64,000 nucleotides of DNA from Thermosynechococcus sichuanensis E542. Its GTDB lineage: Bacteria; Cyanobacteriota; Cyanobacteriia; Thermosynechococcales; Thermosynechococcaceae. The position numbers and the translations under genes were made by a program. The notes beneath the pieces were generated by a model, which saw only the letters and a program-made list of their open reading frames with translations, was not told where the DNA came from and searched no databases. The stretch covers positions 1,535,001-1,599,000 of the forward strand of contig NZ_CP032152.1 of the NCBI RefSeq assembly GCF_003555505.1, written 5' to 3'. Each line of letters starts with the position of its first letter. Within the stretch, counting starts at the first letter, position 1. Shown here piece by piece: positions 18,053 through 48,231 of this stretch.

Positions 18053-18380
18053 TGGTGGGGGCGGAGGGACTTGAACCCTCACGACTTGTTTAAGGTCAAC
18101 GGATTTTCATCCTCCTGCCGCTTTCGCGACCACCCCTTGGGTGTTGAGGATTGGACTCTCCCTTTACCCGCGTAGAGGATCTACGGTAGGGTAGCTCCCG
18201 TCGAGTCTCTGCACCTTCCGTTTCCAGTCTGGGGTTGAGAAACGGCTTGGCTCAGGATTGCCATATTTGCCCTATGGACAAACGTAGGTTTCCCTGAATT
18301 TGAGAGCATTCACTTAATAGATTTCTCTACTAAGGCTCAATTTCTTAAGTCCGCAGCGTCTACCATTCCGCCACGCCCCC
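18053..18380 (-). tRNA. trnL-UAA: tRNA-Leu(UAA) split by a group I intron
   Basis: On the minus strand the 5' exon (18380-18347) starts GGGGGCGTGGCGGAATGG and ends GCGGACTT; the 3' exon (18107-18056) starts AAAATCCGTTGACC and ends CCTCCGCCCCCA. Together they make an 86-nt class II tRNA with a 7-bp acceptor stem GGGGGCG/CGCCCCC and anticodon UAA interrupted after U34. A CCA end is encoded (18055-18053). The exon sequences and insertion point match the classic cyanobacterial and plastid trnL-UAA. Confidence 0.95.
18108..18346 (-). ncRNA. Group I intron (trnL-UAA, subclass IC3 type)
   Basis: The 239-base intron starts AAGAAATTGAGCC and ends GGAGGATG before the 3' exon. Conserved core strings are visible: CTCAGGGAAACCT-like P/Q region (TTCAGGGAAACCTA), GGCAATCCTGAGCCAAGCC, GGAAGGTGCAGAGACTCGAC with GGGAGCTACCC (R/S and P7), and the terminal GAGAGTCCAATCCTCA segment. 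No reading frame for a homing endonuclease is present. Self-splicing is inferred from family knowledge. Confidence 0.92.
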
Positions 18381-32583: not shown

Positions 32584-33702
32584 ATGTACGACTGCATTAT
32601 TGTGGGTGGTGGGCCTGCGGGGGGGGCAGCCGCTTATCATCTCGCACGGCGCCAGCGTTCGGTTTTAGTCCTCGAAAAAGCCGCCCTACCTCGCCCAAAA
32701 CCCTGCACAGGGGGCGTTTCACCGGCGGTTGGCCAATGGTTTGATTTTGACTTTCAACCCGCCATTGCCGATACCACCCGCACTGTGCGCTACAGTTGGC
32801 AGCTCAGTGATGCCGTTGAAGCTGAGTTAAGCATTCCTGAACCCATCTGGATTGTTGAGCGCACGGTCTTTGATCACTACCTGTTGCAACAGGCACAACA
32901 AAAGGGTGCAGTTGTTGCAGATCAGACGGCAGTAACAGGAATTACGTTCCAAGCAGATCACTGGCAGCTCCAGACAGCAACCACGACCTATAGCGGGCGG
33001 TATCTCATTGCTGCTGATGGTGCCAATAGTCAAATGGCTCAGTGGCTAGGGTTTAAGCCCAAAGTGGTGCGCACGGCAGCGGTGATGACCGTCCCCAATC
33101 CCACAGGCGATCGCGCAGCACATTTTGAATTTGGCCTCGTGAAAAATGGCTACCTCTGGAGTTTTCCCAAGGGAGATCAGCGAACGGTGGGGGTTGCCGT
33201 GGTGCGGGGGAGCGATCGCCCCAACTGGGAACCGATTTTGCAACAGTATTGTGCCGCCCATCAGCTTCAGCTTGCGGATTGTCCGATTCAATACCATCCC
33301 CTCTGTGTCTGGGAAGGTCAACAGCCCCTGCATACCCACCATGCCCTCCTTGCCGGTGAAGCCGCTGGTCTAGTGGATCCCTTTTCGGCTGAGGGCGTTC
33401 GTCCCGCCCTTTACAGTGGTATGCGTGCTGCCGAAGCCATTGATGCGGCTCTTGGGGGAGAAGCGGATGCCTTGGCCACCTACAGCAAAACCTTGCAGGA
33501 GGAATGGGGTGCTGATTTAGTGTGGGCACAACGCCTTGCTGGCCTTTTCCATCGCATGCCGAAGGTGGGCTATCGCCTTGCTATGAAACGCCCCTCTGCC
33601 ACCCAGCGGCTGGGGCAAGTCCTCTGTGGTGAATTGCGCTATCGCGATATTGCTGGCCGCGCTATCCAACGTTTGAGCAGTTCCCTAATTCCTGGTCGCT
33701 AG
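32584..33702 (+). CDS. Geranylgeranyl-reductase-family FAD-dependent oxidoreductase
   Basis: The 372-residue flavoprotein has GGGPAGGAAAYHLARR (FAD-binding GxGxxG type), KPCTGGVSP, LIAADGANSQMAQWLG, and the second FAD site LLAGEAAGLVDPFSAEGVRPAL. This fits the geranylgeranyl reductase family (ChlP and relatives), which reduce isoprenoid chains of chlorophyll, tocopherol or archaeal lipids. The KPCTGG segment agrees, but ChlP itself is longer and has other conserved segments, so this is called only to family level. It shares CTAG with the CHASE2 cyclase gene. Confidence 0.85.
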   Translation: MYDCIIVGGGPAGGAAAYHLARRQRSVLVLEKAALPRPKPCTGGVSPAVGQWFDFDFQPAIADTTRTVRYSWQLSDAVEAELSIPEPIWIVERTVFDHYLLQQAQQKGAVVADQTAVTGITFQADHWQLQTATTTYSGRYLIAADGANSQMAQWLGFKPKVVRTAAVMTVPNPTGDRAAHFEFGLVKNGYLWSFPKGDQRTVGVAVVRGSDRPNWEPILQQYCAAHQLQLADCPIQYHPLCVWEGQQPLHTHHALLAGEAAGLVDPFSAEGVRPALYSGMRAAEAIDAALGGEADALATYSKTLQEEWGADLVWAQRLAGLFHRMPKVGYRLAMKRPSATQRLGQVLCGELRYRDIAGRAIQRLSSSLIPGR

Positions 33703-35663
33703 ATCTCCAGTTCAATCGCCGTGGGCTGGTTGGGGGCGATCGCCAGCCCTTTGCGGACGCCAAGAATGCGAAAGACCTGAATTTTGCGCTCCTTGCCCTT
33801 GAGTTCCAAAGGCCCCCATGCCTCGACCTCGTAGCGATCGCCCAAATACTCCAATGTTTCCTGGGCCACTAAAATCCGACAGGGACTTGGCTGGCGGTGC
33901 TTATCCACACTCTCAAGGCGCGAGGCCGTATTCACACTGTCGCCAATCACACCGTACTCCAAGCGATTTTTACTACCCAGACTGCCAACCACAATCGGCC
34001 CTGTATAGATTCCTGCCCGCATCATCACCTGCGGTAGCCCTTGAGCTGCCCATTCGCGATTGAGTTCCTCCAGCAGTTGTCCCAAGGCCAAGGCACAATC
34101 CACCGCATTGCGGGCATCAATGGCAATTCCTTCGCGACTGGTGCGTTTAATGGGCACGCCAAACACAGCCATAATGCCATCACCGGTAAACTTATTAATC
34201 ACACCGTGGTAGCTTTGCACTACATCTGCCACTTTCTCTAGATAGGCATTGAGCCAGTTAAAGAGTTCCTCCGGTTCCATACCTTCAGAAATGGTGCTAA
34301 ACCCCTTCAAATCGGTAAACAGCAGCGTGGCAATCAGGCGTTGGCCGGGCAACTTGCCATCCTTGAGGAGTTCATCCCGTCGTTCCCACATGGCGGCAGC
34401 AATTTCTGGGGAGATACTTTGACCCAAAAGGCGCATCACCATTTGCCGTTGCTGCTGGGCTTGCTGGGCGGTATAGCTGACCACCCCGCCACTGCCAAGG
34501 AGAAGCGTCAATGCCGGTGGCACAAGGGGAACCCAGCCCAACTTGAGAAACAGGCCATAGCAGGTGAGTAAAAGAAGCAGCAGAGCCGTTCCCACCGCTA
34601 TTGCTAGGGTCAGAGGATGGCGCACTCGCCAAGCAAGGATCGCACCAATCAATGCCCAAAGAACAATCCAAAGATTCTCGACACTGTTGGGCCAAAACCA
34701 AATGACGGCGCGATCGCCCAAGCCCGCATCAATGAATTGCCCCACCATTTGGGCATGGATAAATACCCCCGCCATGCGCTGGTTGTCCCGCAGGCCGGAA
34801 CTAAAGGGGGTATAAAAAAAGTCCTTGCCACTTTCGGCAATGTTGCCAATGAGAACCACGCGATCGCGAATTAATTCGGGTGCCACTCGTTCCATCAGGA
34901 CATCCTCAAGGGGCACCCACGTGACCGCCCGCTGATCACCGCGATAATTGAGCATGATCTGATAGCCCGCTGTATCCGCCCCAACATAGCCACCATCATT
35001 GGGTTGCAGGGGTGTGAAAATGGTCTGCCCCAACTGCATCACATTGGGATCCGCATCACTGCCACGAGGCTCAATCCCTTCATCTGCCAAATACCGCAGC
35101 GCTAGCCGCAATGAGAAGGAGTAAAGCGTATTTCCCTGATCGTCCGGCAAAAAGAGTAAACTGCGACGGACAATGCCACCCGCATCAACCGTGACATCAT
35201 TAAACCCCACCTGATCGGCACTGAGGGCAGCCGGGGGGCGGATTGTCGGATGAGTGGCATCCCCCAGTTTCGTTACAGCAAAGAGACGATCGGAATTCAA
35301 CCAAAGGCGATTCAGCGCCTCATGCCCCGGTGGTACCGCAAAATCGCGGTAAATATCCAAGCCAATGGCACGGGGCTGATGTTTGAGGAGTTTTTGGAGG
35401 GCTTGGGCGTAGAGCCAATCCGGCAGCGATAGGGAGCGGTACCGTTGAATATCGGCTTCGGTGACTGCCACCACCAATAGTCGCGGGTCGGGGCCGGGCA
35501 TAGGACGCAATTGCATCAGGCGATCGTAGGCACCCAATTCCAAGGGTTGGAGCCAACCCATCTCACGAATCCCAATCACCACCGTGCTGGCCACAGCGCT
35601 GGCCACGACAATCAGGCCCAGATCAGCAAAGGTGCGGCGAAAGTGGGACAATAGGGGCAGCAT
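33699..35663 (-). CDS. CHASE2-domain adenylate/guanylate cyclase
   Basis: The 654-residue membrane protein has an N-terminal hydrophobic segment (about 13-32), an extracytoplasmic CHASE2 sensor domain to about residue 320 (with LRPMPGPDPRLLVVAVTEADIQ split and YRGDQRAVTWVPLEDVL), three membrane helices at about 325-410, and a class III cyclase domain from about 445: LLFTDLKGFSTISE with the first metal Asp, FTGDGIMAVFGVP with the second, and YGVIGDSVNTASRLE. It should make cAMP or cGMP in response to an external signal. The substrate is not decided by eye. Confidence 0.92.
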   Translation of the reverse strand: MLPLLSHFRRTFADLGLIVVASAVASTVVIGIREMGWLQPLELGAYDRLMQLRPMPGPDPRLLVVAVTEADIQRYRSLSLPDWLYAQALQKLLKHQPRAIGLDIYRDFAVPPGHEALNRLWLNSDRLFAVTKLGDATHPTIRPPAALSADQVGFNDVTVDAGGIVRRSLLFLPDDQGNTLYSFSLRLALRYLADEGIEPRGSDADPNVMQLGQTIFTPLQPNDGGYVGADTAGYQIMLNYRGDQRAVTWVPLEDVLMERVAPELIRDRVVLIGNIAESGKDFFYTPFSSGLRDNQRMAGVFIHAQMVGQFIDAGLGDRAVIWFWPNSVENLWIVLWALIGAILAWRVRHPLTLAIAVGTALLLLLLTCYGLFLKLGWVPLVPPALTLLLGSGGVVSYTAQQAQQQRQMVMRLLGQSISPEIAAAMWERRDELLKDGKLPGQRLIATLLFTDLKGFSTISEGMEPEELFNWLNAYLEKVADVVQSYHGVINKFTGDGIMAVFGVPIKRTSREGIAIDARNAVDCALALGQLLEELNREWAAQGLPQVMMRAGIYTGPIVVGSLGSKNRLEYGVIGDSVNTASRLESVDKHRQPSPCRILVAQETLEYLGDRYEVEAWGPLELKGKERKIQVFRILGVRKGLAIAPNQPTAIELEI

Positions 35664-36561: not shown

Positions 36562-37050
36562 ATGAGTGAACCACTAACGCGATCCGAATTGAGTCAAGTG
36601 TTGGATGCCATCCAAGGGATGCAGGCCAGTCTTCAGACCATAGAGAAAAAGCTGGATATTCACATTGCCACCAGTGGCGAGAGGTTCCAACGACTTGAGG
36701 ACAAAATTGATGCCGTTGAAGCGAAGTTAGAGCAGCGTATCAATGCTGTTGAGGCCAAACTGGAACAGCGTATCAATGCCGTTGAAGCGAAGCTAGAGCA
36801 GCGTATCAATGCTGTTGAGGCCAAACTGGAACAGCGTATCAATGCTGTTGAGGCGCAATTGTCGCAACGTATCAGCACTGTCGAGGGGCAATTAGGGCAG
36901 CGCATTGATACGGTGGAGGCCACATTGCAGCAAATTGTCAAACGGCAGGATGGAACCGATGCCCGTCTGTGGGGATTCTTAGTGACGCTGCTGGTGCTGG
37001 CTGCTGGCTTAATCACTAAGCTGCTGTTCTTTGACACGCCACGCCTTTGA
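36562..37050 (+). CDS. Coiled-coil membrane-tail protein with 11-residue repeats
   Basis: The 162-residue product has an N-terminal helix, then six consecutive 11-residue units of the form VEAKLEQRINA (about residues 53-118), giving a hendecad right-handed coiled coil, and a single membrane helix near the C-terminus (LWGFLVTLLVLAAGLITKLLFF). It resembles the many cyanobacterial tail-anchored coiled-coil proteins of unknown role. The DNA shows 33-bp units and a 66-bp duplication. ATG 36562 follows AAGGGGG-type purines. Confidence 0.7.
   Translation: MSEPLTRSELSQVLDAIQGMQASLQTIEKKLDIHIATSGERFQRLEDKIDAVEAKLEQRINAVEAKLEQRINAVEAKLEQRINAVEAKLEQRINAVEAQLSQRISTVEGQLGQRIDTVEATLQQIVKRQDGTDARLWGFLVTLLVLAAGLITKLLFFDTPRL
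36718..36915 (+). repeat. Tandem 33-bp repeats (six units)
   Basis: Six in-frame 33-bp units start at 36718, 36751, 36784, 36817, 36850 and 36883. Units 1-2 and 3-4 are nearly identical as a 66-bp pair, so a recent duplication of two units is likely; units 5-6 have diverged. Confidence 0.9.
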
Positions 37051-37078: not shown

Positions 37079-39556
37079 TCAAAGCAAATAGGCGATTCCC
37101 CAAGCGAGAGCGATAATGCCTAGCCAAGGGTGCCACATTTGTCGCAGGGGCGATCGCGCAATCTTTTGACTGAGGAGTAAACTGGCAAGGGTACTGACGA
37201 CAAGTGTGGTCGTTTGCAGGAACCCGATCACCGCTGGATGGGCTTGCCAACTGGGTAAACTGGCTCCATCGAGGCCAAAGGTTGCAAAGGTTACGGGCAA
37301 CAACTGACCCGCCTCCCCCAGACCAAGGGGTAAATAATAGGCCAAATTGGCACCCAGCACCAAAGGCAGATACCCATAGGCCAAGCGCACAAAGGGCACT
37401 GAACCTTGTCGTTGCATCTGATGCCAACCCCATGCCAAGAGTCCCGGCAGAGCTAGGGCCACCACCGCAATCATCCCCTGTAACCAAAAATGAGCTTCTG
37501 TCAGTCCCAACCATGCCAAAAGCAGGGGTAAACGGTGTAGCACCACCGCCCCCAAGAGCAAAAACAGCAGGCAAACTTCCGCCGCCGTGGCCTCATGACT
37601 AGTCCAGAGATCAATGGCTGGCGGACGCAGATTCACTTCCACCGAGCGATGGGGGCAAGCCTTGAGACAGGTCATACACAAAACGCAGTTGCGGTTATCT
37701 GTCAGTTGAGCCGGATGGGAATAGACGGGACAGCCCCCCGTTTCTTGACCTTCGCCAAGGGCAGGACCGCCTTTGTAGCATTGGTAGGTTTGGCAACTAG
37801 CAGCACACACCCCCTGCTGTGCCCGCAATTCAAGAATGGAGAGTTTGCCAAAGAGGCCATTCATGCCACCAATGGGGCAGAGATAGCGACACCAAAAGCG
37901 GCGTTCATAAAGCTGGGAAAAAATCACGGCTCCCGCTGTAATCAAGATCAGCAGCCAACTGGATAGATAGGCGGTATTGGGTAAATCCCATAATTCCTCC
38001 CACAGCAGAATCACCGCAAAGAGGCCAAAGAGCACCCAGCCTCCCCAGCGTTCAGCTAGTTGACGCGGCCAAGGGCGTAGCTGGCGCGGCCAGATCTTCA
38101 GGGACAGCCTTTGCAGGACTTCGCCGTAGATCATAAAGGGACAAACCGCACACCAAATGCGCCCCAAAAAGGGAAAAATTAGCAATGAGACCGGCCACCA
38201 CCACGCCCAAAAGAGGTTCAGGGTAAAGTTGTGTGGGCGATCTTGGGGTCCCCAGAGACCAATGGCGACAATTAGGGGAAACAGCCAAAGGGTCAGGCCA
38301 TAGTTGAGGCGATCGGGCCACCACGGACTGCGTAGAAAGGCACGCAATTGGGGATAGGCATTGAGTAGGTTCCAACGAAATCGCCGTTGGCGCGATCGCT
38401 CCGGCCAAAAGACCTCTTCAGTGAGCAACTCCGCCCCGTCTGCTTGCACAAGGGCACGCTCCACTAGACTCGCCAACTCCCGCAGATTGCCGGGAAAATC
38501 ATAACTTTGCAGCCGTCGTAGGGCTTCGGGGGTGATTCGAGGCTTAGGAATGCCCCGTTGCCGGCAGTAGAGGGCAATATAGTAATTCACCAAGGCTTCA
38601 ATGTCCGCCTTTGTCACCCGCAGCGGTGGTACTTTAATTTGGTGGTGCACTAGGTCTTGGCAATCGCAGCCTTTCTTTTCGGCAATCAGGATCAATCGCC
38701 CCGGAAAGCGGCGGGGGAGTGCGGGGGGGTCAGCGACTGGTTCATAGGTCTGTTCCGCCACAAGGCGGCGCAGTTGCGGATAGAGGTGGGCGGGCCATTC
38801 ATGGACATTGTTGAGGATCAGGGTGCCCTCTGCGACCCAGTCAAGGAGACCGGGCTTCGTGGCTTTGCCAAAGAGTTCTGCCCCATTGGCGGATAAGGTG
38901 CCGCAGTTAAAACGAATTAGGGGCTGACGGCGATCGCGCGAGCCATAATGAATCAGTGCAGCAATATTGTCCTTTTCCAGACCCGGTTCACCAAAAATCA
39001 ATACCGGTTGGCGATCGCGAGCGGCCTCCTTAATCCCTTGGCGTAAACGCACCGCATAGCGACTACTCCCCACAATTCCCTGTTTCACTCGCGGCACAAG
39101 ATAGGGGCGCAACACTGCCTGCCGCTCCTGCTCATGGGCAAGATCACTGAGGGCACTTTGCAACTGCTGCGACACCTGTTGGCGGAGTTCAGGAAATTGA
39201 TCAGCCAATGGGGCAAACACCTCGCGGGGCAATGTCCACAGTTCACAGTCCGTGAGGGTAATTACTGTTTGCGGTGCCTGTTGCTCCAGCACCAGTTCTG
39301 GCCAGTGCAAGACCGTTCCCGGTAAAAGTGTCGTCACAGTGGCGGGGCGATCGCGGGTGGTGTGGTAGGCCTCCAATTCTCCTGATCGCAGGATGATTAG
39401 ATGGGTTACCGGTGTGTCTTCAAGGACAATACGGCGATTGGCTGCAATCGATTCTGTGCGTAGGGCAGCAGCGATCGCCTCTAATGCTTCCAAAGAAAGC
39501 GATTTGAAGGGAGTATGGGTTTGCAGCCAACTCAGGCGATCGATCATCGAGGGCAC
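37079..39556 (-). CDS. CNB domain, degenerate sigma-54-type AAA+ and membrane 4Fe-4S polyferredoxin fusion
   Basis: The 825-residue product joins three parts. Residues about 10-135 form a cyclic-nucleotide-binding-type domain. Residues about 155-390 resemble the AAA+ domain of sigma-54 activators (ELFG at 227-230, DFPGNLREL at 353-361), but Walker A reads GEPGLEKD (189-196), Walker B ends in LNN instead of LDE, and the GAFTGA loop is deleted. From about 415 there are membrane helices with C469-x2-C472-P, C556-x3-C560-P and the 4Fe-4S motif C624-x2-C627-x2-C630-x3-C634-P, as in NapH/NosR/CcoG-type polyferredoxins. Cyanobacteria have no sigma-54, so the AAA+ part is probably a signalling scaffold. 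A membrane redox sensor or electron-transfer protein is inferred. Confidence 0.85.
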   Translation of the reverse strand: MPSMIDRLSWLQTHTPFKSLSLEALEAIAAALRTESIAANRRIVLEDTPVTHLIILRSGELEAYHTTRDRPATVTTLLPGTVLHWPELVLEQQAPQTVITLTDCELWTLPREVFAPLADQFPELRQQVSQQLQSALSDLAHEQERQAVLRPYLVPRVKQGIVGSSRYAVRLRQGIKEAARDRQPVLIFGEPGLEKDNIAALIHYGSRDRRQPLIRFNCGTLSANGAELFGKATKPGLLDWVAEGTLILNNVHEWPAHLYPQLRRLVAEQTYEPVADPPALPRRFPGRLILIAEKKGCDCQDLVHHQIKVPPLRVTKADIEALVNYYIALYCRQRGIPKPRITPEALRRLQSYDFPGNLRELASLVERALVQADGAELLTEEVFWPERSRQRRFRWNLLNAYPQLRAFLRSPWWPDRLNYGLTLWLFPLIVAIGLWGPQDRPHNFTLNLFWAWWWPVSLLIFPFLGRIWCAVCPFMIYGEVLQRLSLKIWPRQLRPWPRQLAERWGGWVLFGLFAVILLWEELWDLPNTAYLSSWLLILITAGAVIFSQLYERRFWCRYLCPIGGMNGLFGKLSILELRAQQGVCAASCQTYQCYKGGPALGEGQETGGCPVYSHPAQLTDNRNCVLCMTCLKACPHRSVEVNLRPPAIDLWTSHEATAAEVCLLFLLLGAVVLHRLPLLLAWLGLTEAHFWLQGMIAVVALALPGLLAWGWHQMQRQGSVPFVRLAYGYLPLVLGANLAYYLPLGLGEAGQLLPVTFATFGLDGASLPSWQAHPAVIGFLQTTTLVVSTLASLLLSQKIARSPLRQMWHPWLGIIALAWGIAYLL

Positions 39557-39686
39557 CCTCCAACAAAATTAGTGATGAGGAAACACCTCACTAGCTATGG
39601 CTCAGTTCCCCTACCAAACTGCGCTAGGATTGTAAAGGTTTCTTACGCTCCTCAACGCTCTATTACAAAACCCGCAGGAAGTCGCT

Positions 39687-42117: not shown

Positions 42118-44889
42118 TCAAACTCCGTTCAATACTTGTGCATCTCCATTATCATAAACTTCACAACGATGGATTTTAGGATGACTATTTTGATCTTGAA
42201 TGTAGATTCCTGCTCCAGTATTTCCCCAAATGTTGCAGTCTTCAATCACACCACTGGCACCATCATGGATGAAGATTCCACCTGTTTTTCCCTCATGAAT
42301 CTGACAACGACGGATGGTGGGGTTGCTGTTGGCATTTCTAATCTCAACTCCCGCGAAAGCATTTCCCCAAATGTTGCAGTCTTCAATCACACCACTGGCA
42401 CCATCATGGATGAAGATTCCACTTGTTTTTCCCTCATGAATCTGACAACGACGGATGGTGGGGTTGCTGTTGGCATCTCTAATCCCAACTCCTGCGAAAG
42501 CATTGCCCCAAATGTTGCAGTCTTCAATCACACCACTGGCACCTGCACCAATGCCAATTCCACCTTGTTTTCCCTCATGAATCTGACAACGACGGATGGT
42601 GGGGTTGCTGTTGGCATCGAAAATCCCAACTCCTAGGTGAGCATTGCCCCAAATGTTGCAGTCTTCAATCACACCACTGGCACCTTTACTAATGCCAATT
42701 CCACCTCCTTGTCCTTCATGAATCTGACAACGACGGATGGTGGGGTTGCTGTTGGCATCGCTAATCCAAACTCCTGCCTCATTATTGCCCCAAATGTTAC
42801 ATTCTTCAATCACACCACTGGCACCTTCACCAATGCCAATTCCAACTCCTTGTCCCTCATGAATCTCACAACGACGGATGGTGGGGTTGCTGTTGGCATC
42901 GCCAATCTCAACTCCTGCGACAGCATTGCCCCAAATGTTACATTCTTCAATCACACCACTGGCACCTTCACCAATGCCAATTCCAACTCCTTGTCCCTCA
43001 TGAATCTCACAACGACGGATTGTGGGGTTGCTGTTGGCATCGCTAATCTCAACTCCTACGACAGCATTGCCCCAAATGTTACATTCTTCAATCACACCAC
43101 TGGCACCATCATGGATGAAGATTCCACTTTGTTTTCCCTCATGAATCTCACAACGACGGATTGTGGGGTTGCTGTTGGCATCACTAATCCCAACTTCTGC
43201 GAGAGCATTGCCCCAAATGTTGCAGTCTTCAATCACACCACTGGCACCTTCACCAATGATAATTCCAACTTCTTGTCCCTCATGAATCTCACAACGACGG
43301 ATTGTGGGATTGCTGTTGGCATCGCTAATCCCAACTCCTACGACAGCATTGCCCCAAATGTTGCAGTCTTCAATCACACCACTGGCACCATCATGGATGA
43401 AGATTCCACTTGTTTTTCCCTCATGAATCTGACAACGACGGATGGTGGGGTTGCTGTTGGCATCTCTAATCCTAACTCCTGCGAAAGCATTGCCCCAAAT
43501 GTTGCAGTCTTCAATCACACCACTGGCACCCTCACCAATCAAAATTCCATATTGTTCTCCCTCATGAATCTCACAACCACGGATTGTGGGGTTGCTGTTG
43601 GCATCGCTAATCTCAACTCCTACGACAGCATTGCCCCAAATGTTGCAGTCTTCAATCACACCACTGGCACCATCATGGATGAAGATTCCACTTGTTTTTC
43701 CCTCATGAATCTCACAACCACGGATGGTGGGGTTGCTGTTGGCATCGCTAATCCCAACTCCTACGACAGCATTGCCCCAAATGTTGCAGTCTTCAATCAC
43801 ACCACTGGCACCATCATGGATGAAGATTCCACTTGTTTTTCCCTCATGAATCTGACAACGACGGATGGTGGGGTTACTGTTGGCATCTCTAATCCTAACT
43901 CCTGCGAAAGCATTGCCCCAAATGTTGCAGTCTTCAATCACACCACTGGCACCCTCACCAATCAAAATTCCACTTGTTTTTCCCTCATGAATCTGACAAC
44001 GACGGATGGTGGGGTTGCTGTTGGCATGGATAATCCCAACTCCTGCGAGAGCATTGCCCCAAATGTTACATTCTTCAATCACACCACTGGCACCCTCATA
44101 GATGAGGATTCCTGCACTTTTGCTTTCATGGATATGGCAGCGGCGGATCACAGGATTGGTTCCTGAATTCTTAATAATAACTCCTACAAATGAACTGGAC
44201 TGAATGTCACAATCTTCTAAAATTAAACGACCTTGCTGAATATCTACGCAGGCATTCTCGCCATCATGGGTTGTTCTCAGGGTTAAATTGGCAACGCGGG
44301 CATTCGTAGTTTGCATCAAAATACAGGCGCTATCCTCAGTAACAAGAACGATCTCTGCTACTGGACCATCGCCAATAATTTCAACAGGTTTATTCAAAAT
44401 AAGACTTTCATGATACTGCCCCGGCTTGATGATAATTGTGCTGCCTGCGGGTACTGATGCGAGAGCCTCACGAATACTGCGGTAATCAGCACTGCCATAG
44501 GGGGCAACAGTCACTTGAGTCGTTTGCGGGGAAGTGACCTTGGATTGTGAGGGCGTGACCGAGATTGAGCGATCAGTACTGACTTGTCCAGAAATCCCCA
44601 GAGCAAAGGCCCAAGCTGACACCCCCAAGTGAGCTACTTCTTCCTGCAAGCCCGTTTCATGCATTAGAACCTGAGTCAAGCGACTAACCAGTAGAGCTGG
44701 ATCGCTCTGGCTATCCTGTAGCAGTTTTGTGGCGATACCCTGTTCTTGAGCAAGGATGACTGTGTTGACTTGCCAAGGTGGCAATTGATGGCACAAATCC
44801 CTGAGCAGAGCTTGCAGTTGGGTAGGACGATTGAGGAGGCTGCTATCCTTTTGCAGTTGCTGCCGCAGAATGTCGCTTATTGTGGTCAT
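42118..44889 (-). CDS. Right-handed beta-helix repeat protein, copy 1 (14 units)
   Basis: The 923-residue product has a helical N-terminal domain (about 1-105: TTISDILRQQLQKDSS, QLQALLRDLCHQLPPWQ), a low-complexity Ser/Thr linker, a pectate-lyase/DUF1565-like opening (YRSIREALASVPAGSTIIIKPGQYHES) and 14 copies of a 47-residue unit of form GASGVIEDCNIWGN-x3-GV-x-I-x2-AN-SNPTIRRCQIHEG-x3-GI-x-I. Each unit makes two coils of a parallel beta-helix with Cys at the same place in each coil. No signal peptide is seen, so it is probably cytoplasmic. ATG 44889 is preferred to a TTG five codons upstream. It is near-identical in its N-terminal third to copy 2. Confidence 0.85.
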   Translation of the reverse strand: MTTISDILRQQLQKDSSLLNRPTQLQALLRDLCHQLPPWQVNTVILAQEQGIATKLLQDSQSDPALLVSRLTQVLMHETGLQEEVAHLGVSAWAFALGISGQVSTDRSISVTPSQSKVTSPQTTQVTVAPYGSADYRSIREALASVPAGSTIIIKPGQYHESLILNKPVEIIGDGPVAEIVLVTEDSACILMQTTNARVANLTLRTTHDGENACVDIQQGRLILEDCDIQSSSFVGVIIKNSGTNPVIRRCHIHESKSAGILIYEGASGVIEECNIWGNALAGVGIIHANSNPTIRRCQIHEGKTSGILIGEGASGVIEDCNIWGNAFAGVRIRDANSNPTIRRCQIHEGKTSGIFIHDGASGVIEDCNIWGNAVVGVGISDANSNPTIRGCEIHEGKTSGIFIHDGASGVIEDCNIWGNAVVGVEISDANSNPTIRGCEIHEGEQYGILIGEGASGVIEDCNIWGNAFAGVRIRDANSNPTIRRCQIHEGKTSGIFIHDGASGVIEDCNIWGNAVVGVGISDANSNPTIRRCEIHEGQEVGIIIGEGASGVIEDCNIWGNALAEVGISDANSNPTIRRCEIHEGKQSGIFIHDGASGVIEECNIWGNAVVGVEISDANSNPTIRRCEIHEGQGVGIGIGEGASGVIEECNIWGNAVAGVEIGDANSNPTIRRCEIHEGQGVGIGIGEGASGVIEECNIWGNNEAGVWISDANSNPTIRRCQIHEGQGGGIGISKGASGVIEDCNIWGNAHLGVGIFDANSNPTIRRCQIHEGKQGGIGIGAGASGVIEDCNIWGNAFAGVGIRDANSNPTIRRCQIHEGKTSGIFIHDGASGVIEDCNIWGNAFAGVEIRNANSNPTIRRCQIHEGKTGGIFIHDGASGVIEDCNIWGNTGAGIYIQDQNSHPKIHRCEVYDNGDAQVLNGV
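42121..44094 (-). repeat. 141-bp tandem repeat array of copy 1
   Basis: Fourteen in-register 141-bp units run from 44094 down to 42121; first and last unit starts differ by exactly 13 x 141. Variation is concentrated in the three codons after NIWGN and the codons around the second coil turn, while the rest is nearly fixed. Confidence 0.95.
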
Positions 44890-44904
44890 TGATAAAGATG
44901 GCAA

Positions 44905-45644: not shown

Positions 45645-48005
45645 CTATCTTTGTGAAAAAAACGGATTCCATCGGGAGGGTTGAATCCTGTCCCTAACTT
45701 CACAACGACGGATTTTAGGATGACTATTTTGATCTAGAATGTAGATTCCTGCTACAGTATTTCCCCAAATGTTGCAGTCTTCAATCACACCACTGGCACC
45801 CTCACCAATGATAATTCCATGTTGTTTTCCCTCATGAATCTGACAACGACGGATGGTGGGGTTGCTGTTGACATGGATAATCCCAACTCCTGCGAGAGCA
45901 TTGCCCCAAATGTTGCAGTCTTCAATCACACCACTGGCGCCATCATGGATGAAGATTCCAAATTGTTCTTCCTCATGAATCTGACAACGACGGATGGTGG
46001 GGTTGCTGTTGGCATCTCTAATCGTAACTCCTGCTTCATTATTTCCCCAAATGTTGCAGTCTTCAATCACACCACTGGCACCCTCACCAATGATAATTCC
46101 ACGTTGTTTTCCCTCATGAATCTGACAACGACGGATGGTGGGGTTGCTGTTAGCATAGGCAATCCCAACTCCTATGACAGCATCGCCCCAAATGTTGCAG
46201 TCTTCAATCACACCACTGGCACCAAGATGAATCAAAATTCCGCCTTGTTTTCCCTCATGAATCTCACAACGACGGATGGTGGGGTTGCTGTTGGCATCTC
46301 TAATGTAAACTCCTGCTCTAGTATTTCCCCAAATGTTGCAGTCTTCAATCACACCACTGGCACCCTCACCAATCCAAATTCCACATTCTTCTCCCTCATG
46401 AATCTGACAACGACGGATGGTGGGGTTACTGTTGGCATCTCTAATCCCAACTCCTGCGAGAGCATTGCCCCAAATGTTGCAGTCTTCAATCACACCACTG
46501 GCACCCTCACCAATGATAATTCCACGTTGTTTTCCCTCATGAATCTGACAACGACGGATGGTGGGGTTGCTGTTGGCATTGCTAATCAAAACTCCTGCTT
46601 CATTATTGCCCCAAATGTTGCAGTCTTCAATCACACCACTGGCACCCTCACCAATCCAAATTCCACATTCTTCTCCCTCATGAATCTGACAACGACGGAT
46701 GGTGGGGTTGCTGTTGACATGGATAATCCCAACTCCTGCGAGAGCATTGCCCCAAATGTTGCAGTCTTCAATCACACCACTGGCACCCTCACCAATGATA
46801 ATTCCATTTGTTTTTCCCTCATGAATCTCACAACGACGGATGGTGGGGTTGCTGTTGGCATTGCTAATCAAAACTCCTGCTTCATTATTTCCCCAAATGT
46901 TGCAGTCTTCAATCACACCACTGGCACCCTCACCAATCCAAATTCCACATTCTTCTCCCTCATGAATCTGACAACGACGGATGGTGGGGTTGCTGTTGAC
47001 ATGGATAATCCCAACTCCTGCGAGAGCATTGCCCCAAATGTTGCAGTCTTCAATCACACCACTGGCACCCTCACCAATGATAATTCCATTTGTTTTTCCC
47101 TCATGAATCTCACAACGACGGATGGTGGGGTTGCTGTTGGCATTGCTAATCTGAACTCCTGCGAAAGCATTGCCCCAAATGTTGCAGTCTTCAATCACAC
47201 CACTGGCACCCTCACGAATGAGGATTCCTGCACTTTTGCTTTCATGGATATGGCAGCGGCGGATCACAGGATTGGTTCCTGAATTCTTAATAATAACTCC
47301 TACAAATGAACTGGACTGAATGTCACAATCTTCTAAAATTAAACGACCTTGCTGAATATCTACGCAGGCATTCTCGCCATCATGGGTTGTTCTCAGGGTT
47401 AAATTGGCAACGCGGGCATTCGTAGTTTGCATCAAAATACAGGCGCTATCCTCAGTAACAAGAACGATCTCTGCTACTGAACCATCACCAATAATTTCAA
47501 CAGGTTTATTCAAAATAAGACTTTCATGATACTGCCCCGGCTTGATGATAATTGTGCTGCCTGCGGGTACTGATGCGAGAGCCTCACGAATACTGCGGTA
47601 ATCAGCACTGCCATAGGGGGCAACAGTCACTTGAGTCGTTTGCGGGGAAGTGACCTTGGATTGTGAGGGCGTGACCGAGATTGAGCGATCAGTACTGACT
47701 TGTCCAGAAATCCCCAGAGCAAAGGCCCAAGCTGACACCCCCAAGCGAGCTACTTCTTCCTGCAAGCCCGTTTCATGCATTAGAACCTGAGTCAAGCGAC
47801 TAACCAGTAGAGCTGGATCGCTCTGGCTATCCTGTAGCAGTTTTGTGGGGATACCCTGTTTTTGAGCAAGGATGACTGTGTTGACTTGCCAAGGTGGCAA
47901 TTGATGGCACAAATCCCTGAGCAGAGCTTGCAGTTGGGTAGGACGATTGAGGAGGCTGCTATCCTTTTGCAGTTGCTGCCGCAGAATATCGCTTATTGTG
48001 GTCAT
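45645..48005 (-). CDS. Right-handed beta-helix repeat protein, copy 2 (11 units)
   Basis: The 786-residue product has the same layout as copy 1: helical N-terminal domain, Ser/Thr linker, DUF1565-like opening, then 11 of the 47-residue beta-helix units. Only a few residues differ from copy 1 in the first 240. The C-terminus differs: after CEV the copy 1 ending (YDNGDAQ...) is lost by a deletion of about 36 bp and replaced by the unrelated tail RDRIQPSRWNPFFSQR read from former downstream DNA. Whether this affects capping of the helix is unknown. ATG 48005 is preferred to an upstream TTG. Confidence 0.85.
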   Translation of the reverse strand: MTTISDILRQQLQKDSSLLNRPTQLQALLRDLCHQLPPWQVNTVILAQKQGIPTKLLQDSQSDPALLVSRLTQVLMHETGLQEEVARLGVSAWAFALGISGQVSTDRSISVTPSQSKVTSPQTTQVTVAPYGSADYRSIREALASVPAGSTIIIKPGQYHESLILNKPVEIIGDGSVAEIVLVTEDSACILMQTTNARVANLTLRTTHDGENACVDIQQGRLILEDCDIQSSSFVGVIIKNSGTNPVIRRCHIHESKSAGILIREGASGVIEDCNIWGNAFAGVQISNANSNPTIRRCEIHEGKTNGIIIGEGASGVIEDCNIWGNALAGVGIIHVNSNPTIRRCQIHEGEECGIWIGEGASGVIEDCNIWGNNEAGVLISNANSNPTIRRCEIHEGKTNGIIIGEGASGVIEDCNIWGNALAGVGIIHVNSNPTIRRCQIHEGEECGIWIGEGASGVIEDCNIWGNNEAGVLISNANSNPTIRRCQIHEGKQRGIIIGEGASGVIEDCNIWGNALAGVGIRDANSNPTIRRCQIHEGEECGIWIGEGASGVIEDCNIWGNTRAGVYIRDANSNPTIRRCEIHEGKQGGILIHLGASGVIEDCNIWGDAVIGVGIAYANSNPTIRRCQIHEGKQRGIIIGEGASGVIEDCNIWGNNEAGVTIRDANSNPTIRRCQIHEEEQFGIFIHDGASGVIEDCNIWGNALAGVGIIHVNSNPTIRRCQIHEGKQHGIIIGEGASGVIEDCNIWGNTVAGIYILDQNSHPKIRRCEVRDRIQPSRWNPFFSQR
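45660..47210 (-). repeat. 141-bp tandem repeat array of copy 2, with a 282-bp internal duplication
   Basis: Eleven in-register 141-bp units; first and last unit starts (47210 and 45800) differ by exactly 10 x 141. Blocks 46578-46859 and 46860-47141 are the same two units repeated, with one base difference that I could find (ATTGCCCC versus ATTTCCCC), so the array grew recently. Confidence 0.95.
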
Positions 48006-48231
48006 TGATAAAGATGGCAAATGTTTTATGTTAATCTATCAAGCCTAGCTTACCAAGAAACTGGGTCTAAAGGGCGGCTTTATCTATTCCTCTAGGGGAT
48101 ATGCTAGTCAGAGAAGCCAAGCTCCTGCACGGGTCTCGAGAGCAATACCAAAGGTGAGCGGATATTTTCGTGTCGTCCCCCTCAATTGCCTGCGAGGTTT
48201 GTAAACTGGGTCGAAGAGACTCACTCCTCAC

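What the first reader, a model, noticed from the sequence alone, without database searches (positions are those of the whole stretch)
37079..39556. Membrane polyferredoxin fused to a catalytically dead sigma-54 activator in a lineage without sigma-54
One protein joins a CNB-type sensor domain, a bacterial enhancer-binding AAA+ domain and a polytopic 4Fe-4S module. The AAA+ part retains ELFG and DFPGNLREL but has lost Walker A (GEPGLEKD), Walker B acids (LILNN) and the GAFTGA loop that touches sigma-54. Cyanobacteria lack sigma-54, so the domain was probably re-used, for instance to couple a nucleotide or redox signal to electron flow at the membrane. I know of no assigned function.
Basis: partly seen in the sequence, partly recalled or inferred. 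Interest (0 to 1): 0.75.

Follow-up and report, generated by a model that had tools for sequence, protein, structure and literature searches.

The report
Regulator-headed membrane iron-sulfur protein
This gene, conserved across many cyanobacteria, joins a broken gene-switch motor to a membrane protein that should carry electrons on iron-sulfur clusters; its closest sister proteins sit among sulfide-handling genes, so the old motor has probably been re-used to control electron flow.

Summary
The fusion is real: one 825-codon ORF (start probably codon 4, ATG at 39547), no frameshift, and the same order in over 80 cyanobacteria. N to C: CRP-like domain; AAA+ domain of the sigma-54-activator type; nine-helix NapH/NosR-like module with 12 invariant cysteines, all predicted cytoplasmic. 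"Catalytically dead" is mostly right: Walker B acids, both arginine fingers and the GAFTGA loop are gone. "Lost Walker A" is wrong: the Walker A lysine is invariant in 57/57 homologues, and about a third keep GEPGLGKD. A cAMP link is not supported. Sigma-54 is absent from the genome. New here: (1) a sister subfamily (about 40% identity) with an intact P-loop lies in sulfide loci, cysK directly downstream in 11 of 15 loci examined, with SQR, ArsR, rhodanese or a Rieske protein nearby; (2) the CRP domain was lost repeatedly while the AAA+ part stayed, and one lineage doubled it; (3) an unannotated ~29-aa single-helix protein is encoded divergently beside many orthologues, occurring in 77/152 genomes with the family and 1/62 without, though not in this genome. 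Best reading: a membrane iron-sulfur electron-transfer protein controlled by a repurposed, probably nucleotide-binding pseudo-ATPase. No function is proven.

The parts
37079..39556 (-). whole ORF, 825 codons from GTG; likely true start ATG at 39547 (822 aa)
   Evidence: GGAGG at 39557-39561, 9 nt before ATG 39547; codon 4 aligns with the usual start in orthologues
39200..39451 (-). CRP-like (cNMP_binding) domain, residues 36-119
   Evidence: Pfam PF00027 4.3e-14; cassette Glu kept, Arg variable; lost in several lineages
38729..39076 (-). AAA+ core of sigma-54-activator type, residues 161-276
   Evidence: Pfam PF00158 2.5e-13; model matches FleQ/NtrX/NtrC1
38969..38992 (-). P-loop GEPGLEKD (residues 189-196), Lys195 invariant in 57/57
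38807..38827 (-). Walker B strand GTLILNN (residues 244-250), both acids replaced by Asn
38414..38611 (-). AAA+ lid, residues 316-381
   Evidence: Pfam PF25601 2.2e-15
37079..38383 (-). membrane polyferredoxin module, residues 392-825, nine predicted transmembrane helices
   Evidence: NCBIfam NapH/MauN 50 bits, below the family cut-off 213; AlphaFold2 pTM 0.84; topology by basic loops
38141..38152 (-). first motif, C469-x2-C472-P, cytoplasmic loop after TM2
   Evidence: invariant in 57/57
37877..37891 (-). second motif, C556-x3-C560-P, after TM4
   Evidence: invariant in 57/57
37655..37807 (-). two 4Fe-4S motifs: C584, C588, C593, C609 and C624-x2-C-x2-C-x3-C634-P
   Evidence: invariant in 57/57; low model confidence, pLDDT under 50

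Best explanation
A cytoplasmic-facing membrane electron-transfer protein of the NapH/NosR superfamily whose activity is set by its own N-terminal head. Shown by sequence: domain order, 12 invariant cysteines, invariant P-loop lysine, loss of the residues normally needed to hydrolyse ATP or touch sigma-54, and no DNA-binding domain. Inferred: the nine-helix module exchanges electrons between the quinone pool and a cytoplasmic partner through 4Fe-4S clusters; the AAA+ part binds a nucleotide or phosphate-like ligand without turning it over and acts as a self-associating gate or scaffold; the CRP-like part is an optional extra input that does not bind cAMP in the canonical way. The sister subfamily does this in sulfide oxidation and tolerance loci, so redox poise under sulfide or over-reduction is the likeliest biology. 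For the window's subfamily the partner is unknown; a ~29-aa single-helix protein is the best candidate partner in other cyanobacteria.
For: Domains. Invariant residues. No GAFTGA, arginine fingers or Walker B acids; no HTH. AAA+ fold. Stand-alone whole-module homologue (452 aa) in Deinococcus ficus shows that the module occurs without the head. Related places are annotated NosR/NirI. CxnCP motifs in NapH/NosR are needed for electron transfer: PMC5928378. Subfamily B in sulfide loci: cysK next to the gene in G286, G213, G116, G296, G207, G512, G413, G386, G511 and two plasmids; SQR-like, ArsR, metallo-hydrolase, TauE, rhodanese, DsrE and PetC genes nearby. AAA+ kept in all 57 aligned fusion proteins while the CRP-like domain is lost, and AAA+ duplicated in G398/G412.
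Against: No biochemistry. The cluster-binding region has pLDDT under 50. No solved structure was found to match the membrane module. The window's subfamily has no conserved operon partner. The gene can be lost: within the genus G089, G179, G482 and G497 lack it, and G089 shows a clean deletion leaving 26 codons. Sulfide context belongs to subfamily B only.
Confidence: 0.5

Rival explanations
1. A membrane redox sensor rather than an electron conduit: the clusters report quinone, sulfide or oxygen status and the AAA+/CRP head passes the signal to another protein.
For: Head made of two signalling folds; subfamily B beside ArsR-type regulator genes; NosR and RdhC were first taken for regulators (PMC5928378).
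Against: No DNA-binding or output domain; 12 invariant cysteines and nine helices are more than a simple sensor needs.
Confidence: 0.22
2. An assembly or maturation factor: the AAA+ head scaffolds insertion of a cofactor or small subunit into a photosynthetic or respiratory complex.
For: NosR is implicated in activating NosZ (PMC5928378); pseudo-ATPase AAA+ scaffolds are common (own knowledge); co-occurring tiny membrane protein.
Against: No complex consistently linked by gene neighbourhood; gene absent from many photosynthetic genomes.
Confidence: 0.13
3. A cAMP-gated electron carrier fed by the nearby CHASE2 cyclase.
For: Pfam cNMP_binding above cut-off; cyclase gene at 33699-35663; cassette Glu conserved in most of the window's subfamily.
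Against: Cassette Arg not conserved; CRP-like domain lost repeatedly; CRP-domain-bearing G056 and G111 have no cyclase detected, and cyclases persist where the gene is gone.
Confidence: 0.06
4. A sigma-70-type transcription regulator like TyrR, DhaR or VpsR, which also lack GAFTGA.
For: Known GAFTGA-deficient activators work without sigma-54 (PMC3162934).
Against: Those keep a DNA-binding domain (own knowledge); here its place is taken by the membrane module.
Confidence: 0.04

Closest known systems
NapH / NosR / NirI / RdhC membrane ferredoxin superfamily
   Same: CxxCP and CxxxCP motifs at helix ends, two 4Fe-4S motifs, transmembrane segments; NapH profile match over residues 463-641
   Different: Scores 50 bits against a cut-off of 213; first cluster motif is C-x3-C-x4-CYKG...GCP; extra C-terminal helices; no FMN domain, no NapG-like partner; fused to CRP-like and AAA+ domains
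Bacterial enhancer-binding proteins (NtrX, FleQ, PspF, NtrC1)
   Same: AAA+ core and lid fold, GExGxxK P-loop pattern, ELFG, FPGN-x-x-EL
   Different: No GAFTGA loop, Walker B acids, arginine fingers or Fis HTH; membrane-anchored; no sigma-54 in the genome
GAFTGA-deficient EBP homologues (TyrR, DhaR, HupR, VpsR, YplP)
   Same: AAA+ domain freed from sigma-54
   Different: Those are soluble DNA-binding regulators
Cyanobacterial sulfide loci (sqr, arsR, alternative psbA; Geitlerinema sp. PCC 9228, PMC5061849)
   Same: Neighbours of subfamily B include SQR-like, ArsR, PetC and psbA genes
   Different: This protein and its cysK neighbour were not found by term search in the two papers read; the window's copy is not in such a locus

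Membership tests
sigma-54 activator (bEBP) | AAA+ fold of the activator type | tested here: met
   Pfam; Z 24 to FleQ/NtrX/NtrC1
sigma-54 activator (bEBP) | Walker A lysine and P-loop | tested here: met
   K195 invariant 57/57; pattern GExGxxK; binding itself not tested
sigma-54 activator (bEBP) | Walker B acids | tested here: not met
   NN in the window's subfamily
sigma-54 activator (bEBP) | GAFTGA loop | tested here: not met
   deleted in all rows
sigma-54 activator (bEBP) | arginine fingers | tested here: not met
   both positions changed
sigma-54 activator (bEBP) | DNA-binding HTH | tested here: not met
   no HTH hit; membrane module in its place
sigma-54 activator (bEBP) | sigma-54 present in the genome | tested here: not met
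   PF04552 absent in G000
NapH/NosR superfamily | two CxnCP motifs at helix ends | tested here: met
   C469-C472P and C556-C560P invariant
NapH/NosR superfamily | two 4Fe-4S motifs after the helices | tested here: met
   eight invariant Cys 584-634; cluster content not testable
NapH (equivalog) | curated NapH score | tested here: not met
   50 bits against a cut-off of 213
NosR | FMN-binding domain | tested here: not met
   no such domain among Pfam hits
cAMP-binding CRP domain | phosphate-binding cassette Glu and Arg | tested here: not met
   Glu kept in most of subfamily A, Arg variable
cAMP-binding CRP domain | co-occurrence with class III cyclases | tested here: not met
sulfide-locus protein | gene among sulfide oxidation genes | tested here: not met
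   met for subfamily B, not for the window's copy

The most novel reading that the evidence does not exclude
A widespread, uncharacterised cyanobacterial redox complex: a nucleotide-binding pseudo-AAA+ head gates a membrane polyferredoxin between the quinone pool and soluble carriers, with a ~29-aa single-helix subunit in many lineages, and a sulfide-specialised sister system.
Probability: 0.3. Interest if true: 0.78.

Novelty: new variant of a known kind. Interest (0 to 1): 0.58.

Why it matters
It gives a function-testable home to a conserved cyanobacterial family that can be annotated as a regulator (for example "nitrogen assimilation regulatory protein"). If right, it shows a transcription-activator motor turned into a regulator of membrane electron flow, adds an electron-transfer route next to photosynthesis and sulfide use, and names a tiny protein, apparently missed by annotation, as its likely partner.

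Tried and rejected
cAMP link by cyclase co-occurrence: none. Upstream NtcA, CRP, Fur, HLR1 and LexA-like sites in 49 orthologues: not above shuffled counts. Conserved operon partners of the window's subfamily: none beyond lineage-level synteny; in picocyanobacteria a Fur-type gene lies close downstream in a few genomes only. RNA families: only a tRNA and a tRNA-Leu group I intron elsewhere in the window. Solved structure for the membrane module: no Foldseek match with E under 0.4, best VIA Z 5.9, which does not exclude a known fold. Tiny protein in the own genome: nothing better than E 0.2. CRP-domain remnants near the CRP-less orthologues: none. Literature searches on this architecture found no paper on it. 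Fusion outside Cyanobacteria: not searchable in whole genomes; in the plasmid collection only two records, both cyanobacterial plasmids, match over 80% or more of the protein.

Full report
What is there. The ORF at 37079-39556 (-) is open for 825 codons. Its GTG start abuts the GGAGG at 39557-39561, whereas the ATG at 39547 lies 9 nt from it, so the protein is probably 822 aa. Pfam gives a CRP-like domain, a sigma-54-activator AAA+ core with its lid, and 4Fe-4S motifs; NCBIfam adds a sub-threshold NapH match. The genome is a 2.65-Mb single contig from the Thermosynechococcus group and has no RpoN DNA-binding domain.

Is it real. Relatives were kept from 80 loci of named cyanobacteria, and the gene occurs in about 67 of 292 sampled genomes of the phylum (B-only genomes not counted); most copies have no internal stop. 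Mean column identity over 57 non-redundant homologues is 49%. This is a strongly conserved family, not a frame error.

The AAA+ part. In the window's subfamily (A) the P-loop is GEPGLEKD or GEPGLGKD; Lys195 is invariant across A, the picocyanobacterial branch and the sister subfamily B. Walker B is NN in A, D-x in four of six picocyanobacterial rows, and mostly DN in B. GAFTGA is deleted in every row, both arginine-finger positions are changed, and the sensor II arginine varies. The AlphaFold2 model (mean pLDDT 87.7) matches FleQ, NtrX and NtrC1 AAA+ domains. So it should not hydrolyse ATP by the usual mechanism or act on sigma-54, but ligand binding is not excluded and the lysine suggests it.

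The CRP-like part. The cassette Glu is kept in most A rows but the Arg is not (Q 17, R 11 of 43). The domain is absent, without remnants nearby, in the picocyanobacteria, in L135/L136 and in L137, which lie in different places on the tree; further CRP-less matches occur in family f26. Class III cyclases occur almost everywhere (259 of 292), including in Thermosynechococcus genomes that lack this gene, and were not detected in two genomes that carry the CRP-domain version. The CRP domain is therefore an optional input and cAMP is unlikely. In contrast the AAA+ part is present in all aligned fusion proteins and is duplicated in tandem in G398 and G412 (1121 aa).

The membrane part. Nine predicted helices and 12 invariant cysteines (469, 472, 556, 560, 584, 588, 593, 609, 624, 627, 630, 634), all on the cytoplasmic side by the basic-loop rule. 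A free-standing 452-aa version in Deinococcus ficus shows that the module is a unit. It resembles NapH and NosR, where such motifs are needed for electron transfer (PMC5928378), but no solved structure was found to match it. The region holding the clusters is modelled with low confidence, so cluster number and arrangement are inferred from cysteines only.

Subfamily B. A clade at about 40% identity (SH-aLRT 100) has an intact PG[ST]GKT P-loop in nearly all rows. Counting one locus per genome group or plasmid, cysK follows directly in 11 of 15 loci examined (G286, G213, G116, G296, G207, G512, G413, G386, G511 and the Pseudanabaena and Aulosira plasmids; not G328, G078, G157 or G087; G413 and G386 share a genus label, so 10 of 14 if merged). 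Around it lie SQR-like proteins (best match type III SQR, below the curated cut-off), ArsR regulators, a metallo-hydrolase of the GloB/persulfide-dioxygenase type, TauE, an ACR3-like transporter, rhodanese, DsrE, PetC and psbA. Such neighbours are typical of cyanobacterial sulfide loci (PMC5061849). This does not carry over automatically to the window's copy, which has no such neighbours.

A tiny partner candidate. Searching upstream of orthologues turned up a ~29-aa ORF, consensus MxxxDLPNLWVPLALLGLIVLAAVFFSRS, upstream and divergent in all 40 loci where it is linked. It is coding: 5235 synonymous against 809 non-synonymous single-base codon differences (ratio per site 0.056). It has no Pfam match. 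In 292 genomes it occurs in 36, all with subfamily A, 12 of them not adjacent on the assembly, though a few of these lie at contig ends. In a second, partly overlapping sample of 214 it occurs in 77 of 152 genomes with the family and 1 of 62 without (Fisher 8e-14, ignoring shared ancestry). Within one family (f7) it is 13 of 15 against 0 of 16. Joint deletion of neighbours explains part of this, and some divergent copies (between lapA-like and scpA genes) could be a separate paralogue. It was not found in the window's genome, so it cannot be required everywhere.

Loss. G089 (2,593,857 bp, from memory the length of the strain BP-1 genome) keeps both flanks at about 90% identity and 26 codons of the gene's end; the rest and the neighbouring coiled-coil gene are missing. 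The gene is dispensable in some strains of the genus.

Verdict. The architecture and the loss of activator residues are established; electron transfer and gating are inferred. I set 0.5 on the electron-transfer-with-regulatory-head reading.

Noticed in passing
L012, L018, L026, L057, L058, L060, L100, L104, L109 and others, 72-1912 bp upstream of the family gene, opposite strand: Unannotated ~29-aa single-helix protein, strongly conserved and co-occurring with the family.
   Followed up: yes
L199:4143-7508 and L200:4346-7711: Same protein with two AAA+ domains in tandem (1121 aa); the first keeps a Walker B Asp.
   Followed up: partly
L202, L204, L205, L130, L168, L169: Cyanobacterial sulfide-type gene clusters holding the sister protein, most with cysK, two of them on plasmids.
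   Followed up: yes
window 18134-18356 (-): Group I intron in the tRNA-Leu(UAA) gene; the well-known cyanobacterial intron.
   Followed up: yes
window 42118-44904 and 45645-48020 (-): Two related repeat proteins of the right-handed beta-helix type with long antisense open frames caused by the repeat.
   Followed up: no
window 36562-37050 (+): Coiled-coil protein with tandem repeats (RINAVEAKLEQ) convergent with the gene, missing with it in G089.
   Followed up: no
L115:1459-2067 (-), genome G125: 202-aa ORF resembling only the DNA-binding part of sigma-54 in a cyanobacterium.
   Followed up: no
L208, genome G089: Clean deletion of the gene in a close relative, leaving 26 codons.
   Followed up: partly
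L180, L181, L183, L185, L186, L188: Divergent copies of the tiny ORF lie between a lapA-like gene and scpA in several genomes; L184 and L187 have it near a pipX-like gene.
   Followed up: no
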